NCBI GenBank assembly: GCA_017501255.1
Contig: JAFVXE010000019.1
Span: forward strand, 1-64,000
Reading direction: 5' to 3'
DNA length: 64,000 nt
DNA from: Clostridia bacterium
GTDB taxonomy: Bacteria; Bacillota; Clostridia; Christensenellales; Aristaeellaceae
Shown: positions 351 to 34,202 of the stretch, one piece after another
Numbering within the stretch: the stretch's first letter is position 1
Layout: every line of letters begins with the position of its first letter
The notes under the pieces: model-generated
Seen by the model: only the letters and a program-made list of their open reading frames with translations
What the model was told of the DNA's origin: nothing
Databases searched by the model: none
Translations under genes and position numbers: made by a program

Positions 351-385
351 AAGCGGGATGCCATCATTACGATGACATCCCGCTT
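351..385. terminator. hairpin next to a mobile-repeat remnant
   Basis: A 10-bp stem AAGCGGGATG/CATCCCGCTT. It is followed directly by the sequence TCAGACTGTC, which is the left end of the terminator-nested repeat described at 24732 and 33964. Confidence 0.65.
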
Positions 386-432
386 CAGACTGTCAAAGAA
401 GCCACTTTGTCGAGTTGCAAAGTGGCTTCTTT
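385..432 (+). repeat. terminator-nested repeat, minimal remnant (copy D)
   Basis: It begins with TCAGACTGTCAAA, identical to the left end of the full copies, and goes straight into a perfect 15-bp hairpin (395-409 with 418-432). That hairpin resembles the last stem of the full element (GTCAAAAAAGCC...). The body of the element is missing. The hairpin probably serves as the terminator of the response-regulator gene on the minus strand, whose stop codon is at 436. Confidence 0.55.
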
Positions 433-13070: not shown

Positions 13071-13155
13071 AGTCTATCAAAGGACCTTTCAGAGGTATCG
13101 GAGGGCCGCAGTCCTCCGATTGCTGTTCCGAAACCAGCGGCGTGCATGGTGAAAG
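13071..13155 (+). repeat. terminator-nested repeat, truncated (copy C)
   Basis: AGTCTATCAAAGGACC is followed by AGAGGTATCGGAGGGCCGCA, a CCTCCGAT stem and TTCCGAAACCAGCGGCGTG. It follows the first ~85 bp of the full copies at 24732 and 33964 almost base for base, then degenerates after CATGGTG. It abuts a terminator hairpin, but no second copy of that hairpin follows, consistent with loss of the right half. The rest of the gap to 13308 holds only a probable promoter. Confidence 0.75.
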
Positions 13156-23111: not shown

Positions 23112-24668
23112 TCAGCCCAGCGAGTCCGTCACGTCCGTAACGATTTCCTTATCGTAGCAGGAGAACTTGGCATCCACATCGGCGGGCTTGGTCTTCTGGG
23201 TCAGCAGGCTGACGATGGGCACCAGAATCAGACCGCCCACCATGGCGAACACACCACTGTACAGCGAATTGGTGAAAACAAAGCCCAGAATGCCGCCGGA
23301 GAGCTTGATCCAGCCCACGCTGATGCACAGCTGGATGATCTCCAGTCCGGTGCCGTAAATGAAGCTGACAGCCACGGCAGCCTTGGTGGTTTTCTTCCAG
23401 TAGAGGCCGTAGAGGAAGGGAGCCAGGAAAGCACCGGCCAGTGCACCCCAGCTGACGCCCATCATCTGGGCGATGAACACGCTGTCAGCCCAGATGGAAT
23501 CCTTCAGGATGGCGATCACAGCGGATACGGCAATAAAGAACACGATCAGCCAGCGCATGGTCAGCAGAGTGCTCTTTTCGTCCTGCTCTTTCTTGCGCAG
23601 GGGCTTGATCACATCCAGCGCAAGGGTGGAGGCAGAAGTCAGCACCAGAGAAGACAGGGTGGACATGGAGGCAGCCAGCACCAGCACCACCACCAGCGCA
23701 ACGATCGCCGGCGCCAGATTGCTCAGCATGGCGGGAATGATCCGGTCGTAGCCGGGCAGGTTCTCGGGGGTGAAGTACAACCGGCCGAAGCCGCCCAGGA
23801 AGTAGCAGCCGCCCGCCACGATGATGGCGAACACGGTGGAGATGACGGTGCCCTTCTTGATGGAATCCTCATCCTTGATGGAGTAGAACTTGCCCACCAT
23901 CTGGGGCAGACCCCAGGTGCCAAGGGAGGTGAGCATGACAACGAAGAACAGGAATACCGGCTGCGGGCCAAGGAAGGAGGTATACTTCCAGCCGTCGGTG
24001 CCGGTGGTGGCAATGGTTTCAACGGCCTGCATAAAGCCGCCGTTGCCCTTGAGCACCGCAGCGATGACCAGCACAATGCCGCCCAGCATGATAACGCCCT
24101 GAATAAAGTCGTTGATGGCGGTGGCCATGTAGCCGCCGAAGATCACATACAGGCCGGTCAGGGCAGCCATCATCACCACAACCACCCAGTAAGGCAGCTG
24201 AAACACATTGTTGAACAGGCTGCTCAGACCGTTGTACAGGCTGGCGGTGTAGGGAATCAGGAAGATAAAGACGATTACGGAAGCGGCGATTTTCAGGCCA
24301 TTGGAATTATACCGCTTGGCGAAGAAATCGGGCATGGTTTTGGAGGAAAGATGCTGGGTCATCACACGGGTGCGGCGGCCCAGCACAATCCAGGCCAGCA
24401 GGGAACCGATGAAGGCATTGCCCAGACCAATCCACGTGGAAGCAACGCCGAAGTTCCAGCCGAACTGGCCCGCATAGCCCACAAAGATAACCGCAGAGAA
24501 GTAGGAGGTACCAAAGGCGAACGCCGTCAGCCACGGGCCTACGGAGCGGCCGCCCAGCACAAAGCTGTCCACATTGGTGGCGTGCTTGCGGCAATACAGA
24601 CCCACGCCAATCATCAGAGCAAAGAACAGAATCAGCATGGGGATAGCAATGATTGCAGATGCAGACAT
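23112..24668 (-). CDS. sodium:solute symporter family protein (518 aa)
   Basis: About thirteen membrane segments of the SSS family. Signatures are FVLGGRSVGPWLTAFAFGTSYFSAVIFVGYAG near the N-terminus and GTWGLPQMVGKFYSIKD in the middle. It imports an organic solute with Na+. It lies downstream of the aryl-acid genes on the same strand but is separated by a terminator and the mobile repeat at 24708-24960, so it may have been cut off from them. An aromatic or short-chain carboxylate substrate is only a guess from context. The start ATG 24668 has AAAGGA about 11 nt upstream. Confidence 0.9.
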   Translation of the reverse strand: MSASAIIAIPMLILFFALMIGVGLYCRKHATNVDSFVLGGRSVGPWLTAFAFGTSYFSAVIFVGYAGQFGWNFGVASTWIGLGNAFIGSLLAWIVLGRRTRVMTQHLSSKTMPDFFAKRYNSNGLKIAASVIVFIFLIPYTASLYNGLSSLFNNVFQLPYWVVVVMMAALTGLYVIFGGYMATAINDFIQGVIMLGGIVLVIAAVLKGNGGFMQAVETIATTGTDGWKYTSFLGPQPVFLFFVVMLTSLGTWGLPQMVGKFYSIKDEDSIKKGTVISTVFAIIVAGGCYFLGGFGRLYFTPENLPGYDRIIPAMLSNLAPAIVALVVVLVLAASMSTLSSLVLTSASTLALDVIKPLRKKEQDEKSTLLTMRWLIVFFIAVSAVIAILKDSIWADSVFIAQMMGVSWGALAGAFLAPFLYGLYWKKTTKAAVAVSFIYGTGLEIIQLCISVGWIKLSGGILGFVFTNSLYSGVFAMVGGLILVPIVSLLTQKTKPADVDAKFSCYDKEIVTDVTDSLG

Positions 24669-24707
24669 GGGGGATAACATCCTTTCTTTTGTGATGATCA
24701 AATCCAA

Positions 24708-24731
24708 ACGCCTTCCCAAACGGGAAGGCGC
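24708..24731. repeat. left copy of duplicated terminator hairpin
   Basis: Exactly the same 24 nt as 24937-24960 (stem CGCCTTCCC/GGGAAGGCG). On the minus strand this copy is followed by TTTGGATTT, so it keeps the T-tract of the terminator belonging to the ACT-domain gene. Confidence 0.85.
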
Positions 24732-24936
24732 CAGACTGTTGACAAACCCCAGGAGGTATCGGAGGGGCGCACCCCTCCGATGGTCTTCCGAAACCGGCGG
24801 CGTGTACGGCGGTTTCGGAACCCTTGCGTAGCAAGGGATTCCTATCACCGTTTGCCGCCCGGCGAGCCGCAGGCTCGTAGGCAAACGGTGCAAACTCGTT
24901 GAAAAAGCCGCCGAAGGCGTGTTTTTCAACGATCTG
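24732..24936 (+). mobile_element. terminator-nested element, complete copy A (205 bp, non-coding)
   Basis: Imperfect terminal inverted repeats (CAGACTGTTGACAAAC at the left; the right end reads CAGATCGTTGAAAAAC in reverse). Internal hairpins: ATCGGAGGGG/CCCCTCCGAT; TTCCGAAACCG/CGGTTTCGGAA; CCCTTGC/GCAAGGG; CACCGTTTGCC/GGCAAACGGTG enclosing CGAGCC/GGCTCG; GTTGAAAAA/TTTTTCAAC around GCCGCCGAAGGC. It carries no transposase. It is flanked by an exact 24-nt direct repeat that is the whole terminator stem-loop. Near-identical to 33964-34170 with compensatory stem changes. The 310-bp gap holds nothing else. Confidence 0.85.
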
Positions 24937-24960
24937 ACGCCTTCCCAAACGGGAAGGCGC
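24937..24960 (-). terminator. terminator hairpin of the ACT gene (right copy of the duplication)
   Basis: Same 24 nt as 24708-24731. On the minus strand it is reached first by transcripts of the ACT gene, but it is followed by TCAGATCG instead of a T-tract. Confidence 0.75.
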
Positions 24961-24978
24961 TTGGGTTTGGTATTGAGC

Positions 24979-25410
24979 TTACAGCTTGGCGATATCCGCA
25001 TCGGTGATGATGTGGAAGCCATTCTCCGTCAGCACCGCTTCCGCAGCGGCGTTGTCCGCCACACGGATGACCACATAGGCGTGGCGCTCGGTACGGGTGA
25101 GGAAGGCGTAAAGGTATTCCATGTTGATATCCGCTTTGTCCAGAATATCCAGCGCCTTGGACAGCTTGCCCGGAGCGTCGCCGATCTTCACGCCCACCAC
25201 ATCGATGTTCTTGATGATGTAGCCCAGATCGGTGAGGGCCTTGGTGGCGGCTTCGTTGTTGTTGACGATCAGGCGCAGAATGCCGAACTCCTGGGTATCG
25301 GCGATGGACAGGGCCCGGATGTCCACGTTGGCTTCAGCCAGCGCTTCGGTGATCTTCACCAGAGAGCCCTTCTGGTTTTCCACAAATACAGTCAGCTGAT
25401 TGATTGCCAC
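24979..25410 (-). CDS. tandem ACT-domain protein (143 aa)
   Basis: Two ACT domains (about 4-65, INQLTVFVENQKGSLVKITEALAEANVDIRAL, and 70-140), which bind amino acids. The start is GTG at 25410 with AAAGGA 10 nt upstream. It lies 7 bp after the PaaK-like ligase gene. ACT proteins of this type often accompany aryl-CoA ligase and indolepyruvate oxidoreductase genes and probably sense an aromatic amino acid. No DNA-binding or catalytic domain is attached. Confidence 0.88.
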   Translation of the reverse strand: MAINQLTVFVENQKGSLVKITEALAEANVDIRALSIADTQEFGILRLIVNNNEAATKALTDLGYIIKNIDVVGVKIGDAPGKLSKALDILDKADINMEYLYAFLTRTERHAYVVIRVADNAAAEAVLTENGFHIITDADIAKL

Positions 25411-25417
25411 GGTTCGA

Positions 25418-33936: not shown

Positions 33937-33963
33937 GAGGCTGTTGCAATCATGCAGCAGCCT
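33937..33963 (+). repeat. left copy of duplicated terminator hairpin
   Basis: 27 nt identical to 34171-34197 (stem GGCTG(T)TGC/GCAGCAGCC). It follows the stop of the secreted-protein gene by 6 nt but is followed by TCAGACTG, not by a T-tract. Confidence 0.85.
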
Positions 33964-34170
33964 TCAGACTGTCAAAAAAGCTCCAGAGGTATCGGAGGGC
34001 CGCAGCCCTCTGATTGTCAATCCGAAACCAGCGGCGTGTACGGTGGTTTCGGAACCCTTGCGTAGCAAGGGATTCCTATCGCCGTTTGCCGCCCGGCGAG
34101 CCGTAGGCTCGTAGGCAAACGGTGCATAACTCGTCAAAAAAGCCGCCGTAGGCGTGTTTTTTGACGACCT
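33964..34170 (+). mobile_element. terminator-nested element, complete copy B (207 bp, non-coding)
   Basis: Terminal inverted repeats TCAGACTGTCAAAAAA (left) and, in reverse, TCAGGTCGTCAAAAAA (right). The same five hairpins as copy A in the same order. Compensatory changes: AAACCA/TGGTTT for AAACCG/CGGTTT, GGGC/GCCC for GGGG/CCCC, and GTCAAAAAA/TTTTTTGAC for GTTGAAAAA/TTTTTCAAC. Flanked by an exact 27-nt direct repeat comprising the terminator stem-loop. It has no credible gene. Confidence 0.87.
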
Positions 34171-34202
34171 GAGGCTGTTGCAATCATGCAGCAGCCTCTT
34201 TT
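34171..34202 (+). terminator. terminator (right copy of the duplicated hairpin)
   Basis: GAGGCTG ... CAGCCTC stem followed by TTTTC. This copy keeps the T-tract, so transcription of the gene at 33433 can still end here, after reading through the element. Confidence 0.8.

What the first reader, a model, noticed from the sequence alone, without database searches (positions are those of the whole stretch)
24708..24960. Non-coding mobile element inserted in a terminator with duplication of the whole terminator hairpin
A 205-bp element with imperfect terminal inverted repeats (CAGACTGTTGACAAAC) is flanked by two exact 24-nt copies of the ACT-gene terminator stem-loop. The original site can be rebuilt: lower-stem bases CCAA lie left of the left copy and TTGG right of the right copy. 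So the duplicated unit is the hairpin cut at the foot of its stem, an unusually long target duplication. The element has five hairpins and no transposase. The insertion leaves one hairpin copy beside the T-tract. It may be a MITE-like passenger of a transposase that recognises terminator hairpins.
Basis: partly seen in the sequence, partly recalled or inferred. Interest (0 to 1): 0.82.

Follow-up and report, generated by a model that had tools for sequence, protein, structure and literature searches.

The report
Terminator-duplicating mini-transposon of IS1182 type
A 205-base non-coding mobile element, present about 40 times in this bacterium's genome, jumps into the hairpins that end gene transcripts and copies the whole hairpin on both sides, so that it probably spreads without destroying the stop signal; full-size relatives (IS1182-family insertion sequences) in many other bacteria do the same.

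Summary
The 205-bp element (24732-24936) has ~40 copies in its genome and occurs in 12 of 17 genomes of its genus. Of 62 copies with both ends, 47 are flanked by long direct repeats (permuted flanks: mean 0.02). The repeats differ in sequence and length (15-47 bp) between copies, and 42 of 48 fold as one hairpin filling the repeat. Two relatives keep the empty site: the same two genes with a single hairpin. The likely autonomous partner is an IS1182-family insertion sequence: same terminal repeat (CAGACTGTCAAAGAA, 15/15), remnants in this genome and window, intact copies in other Clostridia, Bacilli and Fusobacteriota, 30 of 45 with the same whole-hairpin duplication. Cuts fall at the hairpin's foot (AA^A-hairpin-T^TT). 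DDE target duplications normally have fixed length; here length follows the hairpin, suggesting that the extruded hairpin itself is recognised (inferred). Known: staphylococcal IS1272, same family, targets terminator hairpins but deletes them; its discoverers drew whole-hairpin duplication as a theoretical pathway. I found no published example, but ISfinder and the main IS reviews were unavailable. New variant of a known kind.

The parts
24732..24936 (+). 205-bp non-autonomous element (MITE), no transposase-like frame, five internal hairpins
24732..24747 (+). left terminal inverted repeat CAGACTGTTGACAAAC
   Evidence: first 20 bases match the end of a Christensenellaceae IS1182 element at 19 of 20 positions (L217)
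24921..24936 (-). right terminal inverted repeat CAGATCGTTGAAAAAC, 13/16 to the left one; also the arm of a terminal hairpin 24896-24932
24708..24731 (.). left copy of the duplicated terminator hairpin (target-site duplication, 24 bp)
   Evidence: single in relatives
24937..24960 (.). right copy of the duplicated terminator hairpin
   Evidence: called as terminator-like on the + strand
24704..24707 (.). CCAA, lower-stem bases left of the left copy
24961..24964 (.). TTGG, lower-stem bases right of the right copy
24979..25416 (-). ACT-domain gene whose terminator was hit
   Evidence: orthologues
23112..24670 (-). sodium:solute symporter-like gene downstream (start MSASAII...)
   Evidence: synteny with G005 and G007
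33965..34171 (+). second full copy of the element family in the window
33938..33964 (.). left hairpin copy of the second element (AGGCTGTTGCAATCATGCAGCAGCCTT)
34172..34198 (.). right hairpin copy of the second element (26 of 27 identical)
386..430 (-). solo terminal remnant of the presumed autonomous IS1182 element (96% over 45 bases to the G006 IS), abutting hairpin 351-385
13092..13144 (+). fragment of the element's left half

Best explanation
The element is a MITE (a short, non-coding, multi-copy transposon) moved in trans by an IS1182-family DDE transposase that inserts into the stem-loops of intrinsic transcription terminators. The transposase joins the element's 3' ends to opposite strands at the two feet of the hairpin, within the A-tract and the T-tract; gap repair then makes a copy of the whole hairpin on each side. 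One copy keeps the T-tract, so the host gene probably keeps a terminator. Shown here: copy number, spread, sequence-independent hairpin duplication, empty site, end positions, and the matching ends and habit of IS1182 elements. Inferred: mobilisation in trans by that transposase, recognition of the extruded hairpin or four-way junction rather than of linear DNA, and preserved termination.
For: About 40 loci in the own genome; 12 of 17 genomes of the genus; 52 of 300 genomes and 13 of 50 genera of the family. 47 of 62 two-ended copies carry long direct repeats against 0.02 (maximum 1) for permuted flanks. 42 of 48 repeats fold as one hairpin reaching within 2 nt of both repeat ends, lengths 15-47, mean z -6.4. 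Empty site with an identical hairpin core in G005 and a single hairpin in G007. IS1182 partner: NCBIfam NF033551 above cut-off in intact copies; TIR CAGACTGTCAAAGAA identical over 15 nt to copies of this MITE family; three remnants in this genome; 30 of 45 two-ended IS copies with whole-hairpin duplication against 0.07 for permuted flanks, including nearly all copies in the complete Chakrabartyella piscis genome; further cases in Sutcliffiella, Acetoanaerobium and Cetobacterium. Edge consensus AA^A...T^TT; last base of the repeat is T in 27 of 27 exact IS1182 cases.
Against: No intact IS1182 transposase was found in this genome, so present mobility is unproven; the assembly is in 61 contigs, several ending inside copies. 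About a quarter of the MITE copies and a third of the IS copies have no matching repeats; several of these sit between two different hairpins, which I read as recombination between copies. The MITE shares only its ends, not its interior, with the IS1182 elements. No experiment shows structure recognition.
Confidence: 0.86

Rival explanations
1. The hairpins belong to the element itself (each element is bounded by its own terminators) and are not target duplications.
For: Both ends carry the same hairpin in this copy.
Against: Copies have different hairpins and the hairpin stands alone at the empty site in relatives.
Confidence: 0.01
2. The transposase recognises linear terminator sequence (A-tract, spacer, T-tract) and makes cuts 15-47 bp apart; the hairpin is incidental.
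For: Cut sites lie in A and T runs with a clear edge consensus.
Against: The repeat length follows the hairpin and the repeats are mostly centred on its dyad (equal offsets on both sides in 37 of 48). A fixed protein complex on linear DNA would be expected to give a fixed spacing. Staphylococcal IS1272 of the same family is reported to recognise stem-loops rather than sequence (PMC5678879, PMC4923244).
Confidence: 0.15
3. The partner is the ISL3-type transposase found at C13:5783-6493 in the same genome, inside an element with similar ends.
For: A 1067-bp element with CAGACCGTTGACAAA/CAGACTGTCAAAGAA ends carries a PF01610 domain and abuts terminator hairpins.
Against: It is the only ISL3 match in 17 genomes of the genus, while the MITE is in 12 of them. 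It carries an in-frame stop. One end is the IS1182 end (26 of 26 bases), so it looks like a foreign gene caught in a recombined IS1182 remnant.
Confidence: 0.04
4. The copies spread by recombination or replication slippage between hairpins rather than by a transposase.
For: Some copies join two different hairpins, as recombination would give.
Against: Precise ends at CAG...CTG, precise hairpin repeats at unrelated sites, a clean empty site, and autonomous relatives with intact transposases behaving the same way.
Confidence: 0.03

Closest known systems
IS1272 / TnSha1 of staphylococci (IS1182 family; PMC5678879, PMC4923244)
   Same: Same transposase family; targets stem-loops, many of them terminators, with no sequence consensus; terminal repeats of about 16 bp.
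   Different: IS1272 removes the target hairpin (no target duplication); here the whole hairpin is duplicated. This is 'pathway b' drawn as a possibility in Fig. 13 of PMC5678879.
Other IS1182-family elements with reported direct repeats (ISPse1, PMC3281130; ISCaa15, PMC3196728)
   Same: Same family and size class.
   Different: Those are listed with 4-bp direct repeats; here repeats are 15-47 bp, of variable length, and palindromic.
MITEs derived from IS1182 elements (ISMac2 derivatives in Methanosarcina, PMC3852290)
   Same: Short non-coding derivatives of IS1182 elements, multi-copy.
   Different: Direct repeats of 4 or 0 bp as I read the table; terminator targeting is not mentioned in the passage read.
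BOX, RUP and SPRITE elements of pneumococcus; REP/BIME
   Same: High-copy structured intergenic repeats.
   Different: Whole-hairpin target duplication is not among the features I read about (PMC10969869). Their ends and partner enzymes were not compared here.

Membership tests
MITE | short, non-coding, with terminal inverted repeats | tested here: met
   205 bp, 13/16 TIR match, no transposase-like frame
MITE | multiple dispersed copies with target-site duplications | tested here: met
   about 40 loci in the genome; 47 of 62 copies with duplications
MITE | ends shared with an autonomous element | tested here: met
   15/15 with the G006 IS1182 end; 18/20 with Chakrabartyella IS and 19/20 with a Christensenellaceae IS
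MITE | mobilised in trans by that element's transposase | not testable with these tools
   needs an experiment; two copies in different hairpins are 204/205 identical, which suggests recent movement
IS1182 family (partner) | transposase matches the IS1182 model above its cut-off | tested here: met
   NF033551 at 375-462 bits against cut-off 270 in four intact copies; DUF772 and DDE_Tnp_1_6 domains; invariant D145, D273 and nearly invariant E400
IS1182 family (partner) | short direct repeats of about 4 bp | tested here: not met
   direct repeats are whole hairpins of 20-39 bp in 30 of 45 copies; the family is described as heterogeneous (PMC5678879), so this does not exclude membership
IS1272 mode of insertion | insertion at a stem-loop | tested here: met
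IS1272 mode of insertion | target stem-loop replaced, no duplication | tested here: not met
   both copies of the hairpin are present and the empty site has one
ISL3 family | partner transposase with PF01610 present where the MITE is | tested here: not met
   one decayed copy in 17 genomes

The most novel reading that the evidence does not exclude
A clade of DDE transposases chooses its target by DNA shape: it binds the four-way junction of an extruded terminator hairpin and joins its ends to the two feet, so that the target duplication has whatever length the hairpin has. MITEs exploiting it have multiplied terminators across a whole genus of Clostridia.
Probability: 0.5. Interest if true: 0.78.

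Novelty: new variant of a known kind. Interest (0 to 1): 0.63.

Why it matters
Target duplications of DDE transposons are normally of fixed length because the enzyme complex sets the distance between the two cuts. Here the hairpin appears to set it, over a range of at least 15-47 bp, which gives a natural test of structure-guided transposition, with dozens of intact elements to choose from. It also shows how a high-copy element can live almost harmlessly: it enters a terminator and leaves a terminator. For genome annotation it explains a class of long palindromic direct repeats around IS1182 elements, and paired terminators around structured intergenic repeats. The contrast with IS1272, which deletes the hairpin, offers a comparison between related enzymes that appear to join on opposite sides of the same structure.

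Tried and rejected
No Rfam family matches the region, and the element is not in the phage collection. PF13751 finds no IS1182 catalytic domain in the own genome. ISL3 as partner was followed and dropped. A crude reading-frame analysis of gene context around the copies gave muddled results because of spurious open frames, and is not used. De novo end-finding failed for five of the eight plasmid IS1182 copies; these are not counted either way. An AlphaFold2 model of the transposase (mean pLDDT 78) matched only generic DDE/RNase-H folds with no match below E 0.001, so it says nothing about hairpin recognition. Full-text searches for a published description of whole-hairpin duplication found none beyond the model in PMC5678879; the main IS reviews are not held. 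From memory, ISfinder lists a wide range of direct-repeat lengths for IS1182, so curators may have seen such repeats.

Full report
Observation. The 24-nt repeats, the terminal repeats and the rebuilt lower stem are exactly as described. The insertion lies between an ACT-domain gene (24979-25416, minus strand) and a sodium:solute symporter-like gene (start near 24670, minus strand).

The element is a repeat family. The 205 bp find 55 matches, falling into about 40 loci, in the window's own 2.89-Mb genome. One other copy (L002) is 204/205 identical but sits in an unrelated hairpin, so movement is recent on an evolutionary scale. A second full copy lies in the same window at 33965-34171. In the genus, 12 of 17 genomes carry the family, some with several dozen to about a hundred candidate copies; in the family, 52 of 300 genomes and 13 of 50 genera. 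There are two length forms, about 205 and about 302-305 bp, the longer with extra sequence at the second internal hairpin.

The flanking repeats are whole hairpins. For 62 copies with both ends readable, 47 have long direct repeats immediately outside CAG...CTG; with left and right flanks permuted among copies the mean is 0.02 and the maximum 1. Of these, 42 fold as a single hairpin reaching within 2 nt of both ends of the repeat; mean folding z is -6.4 against shuffles of the same bases; and 37 of 48 have equal offsets at the two ends, so the duplicated unit is centred on the dyad. Two further copies counted as negative (L120, L133) have visible hairpin repeats with small differences. The hairpin sequences are unrelated from copy to copy.

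Empty site. The ACT-gene orthologue search gave syntenic loci in G005 and G007. Both have the ACT gene and the symporter gene with a single hairpin between them and no element. In G005 the hairpin core is identical to the window's (CGCCTTCCCAAACGGGAAGGCG). This indicates that the second hairpin copy arose with the insertion.

The partner. Scanning for the terminal repeats found an element in relative G006 (L113, about 1.49 kb) with ends CAGTCTGTCAAAAAAGG and CAGACTGTCAAAGAAGCC, carrying a damaged transposase of the IS1182 family. Its 15-base end CAGACTGTCAAAGAA is identical to that of many copies of the MITE. This genome holds three remnants of that IS: the first 200 bp at C46 (91%), the last 45 bp in the window itself at 385-429 (96%) next to a terminator hairpin, and the last 26 bp at C13 (100%). 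A scan of genome contigs gave 80 loci with relatives. Intact copies score above the NCBIfam IS1182 cut-off. Of 45 copies with both ends, 30 have exact or near-exact hairpin repeats of 20-39 bp (permuted flanks 0.07), including nearly all copies in the complete genome of Chakrabartyella piscis. Plasmid copies in Sutcliffiella (30 bp), Acetoanaerobium (24 bp) and Cetobacterium (22 bp) do the same, so the habit reaches Bacilli and Fusobacteriota.

Where the cuts fall. Among exact duplications of the IS1182 set, the last base of the repeat is T in 27 of 27 and the next base T in 25 of 27; the first base is A in 22 of 27 and the base before it A in 23 of 27. Pairing inside the repeat is 89-100% and falls off outside it. 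The target therefore looks like an intrinsic terminator cut inside its A-tract and T-tract, at the foot of the stem.

Mechanism. The end positions fit the model of PMC5678879: a DDE transposase that joins the 3' ends of the element to the target at the 5' feet of a stem-loop leaves two single-stranded copies of the hairpin, and repair yields a whole-hairpin duplication (their pathway b). In an extruded cruciform the two feet meet at the four-way junction whatever the length of the hairpin, which would explain why the duplication length varies. That step is inference. A linear-DNA alternative cannot be excluded by sequence alone, but it needs an explanation for the variable spacing.

Copies without repeats. 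Several such copies lie between two different hairpins. The right hairpin of L129 is the left hairpin of L138, and the elements at C13 and C46 have the same two hairpins in exchanged positions. This is what homologous recombination between copies would give.

Internal structure. Across 53 aligned copies the consensus structure has 56 pairs with 99.1% of cells paired; 20 pairs show changes on both sides against 8.5 (maximum 13) in shuffles, and 4-10 when one side is slid by 1-3 bases. The internal hairpins are thus maintained; whether as RNA or as DNA cannot be told.

Comparison with what is known. IS1272 and TnSha1 target stem-loops, many of them verified terminators, without sequence consensus, and delete them without target duplication. 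PMC4923244 cites a review saying that some IS1182 members target palindromes. Other IS1182 elements are listed with 4-bp repeats. IS1182-derived MITEs with 4-bp or no repeats are listed for Methanosarcina. The element here is a MITE of IS1182 type with a target outcome opposite to that of IS1272. I found no earlier description in the papers available; the main reviews and ISfinder could not be read.

Noticed in passing
window 351-430: Solo 3' end of an IS1182 element (CAGACTGTCAAAGAAGCCACTTTG...GTGGCTTC) directly beside a terminator hairpin (351-385): the autonomous element was once here and left its terminal hairpin.
   Followed up: yes
L067 1501-2567 (G000:C13) and L076 1501-1835 (G000:C46): Two elements bounded by IS1182/MITE-type ends carry an ISL3-like transposase gene with one stop and an IS1182 N-terminal fragment; each sits between the same two different hairpins, in exchanged positions.
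   Followed up: partly
L129 and L138 (G005): The right hairpin of one MITE copy is the left hairpin of another: a trace of recombination between copies, hence of genome rearrangement.
   Followed up: partly
copies in L051, L054, L066, L069, L078: Longer form of the MITE (302-305 bp) with about 97 extra bases at the second internal hairpin; origin of the extra sequence unknown.
   Followed up: no
element, window about 24819-24892: The right half of the element (CCCTTGCGTAGCAAGGG and the ACCGTTTGCC stem) is more conserved than the left and keeps its pairing; it might be a functional RNA or a protein binding site.
   Followed up: partly
transposase of L181, residues 322, 348, 351, 357: Four invariant cysteines in the insertion between the second and third catalytic residues, like a zinc-binding knuckle; a candidate for target recognition.
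   Followed up: no
G000 contigs C2, C11, C16, C19, C33, C38, C40, C54, C57, C61: Many contigs end in or very near copies of this family, so it breaks the assembly and the true copy number is probably higher.
   Followed up: no
window 13072-13150: A truncated left half of the MITE, close to a hairpin (GACGCC...GGGCGTC).
   Followed up: no
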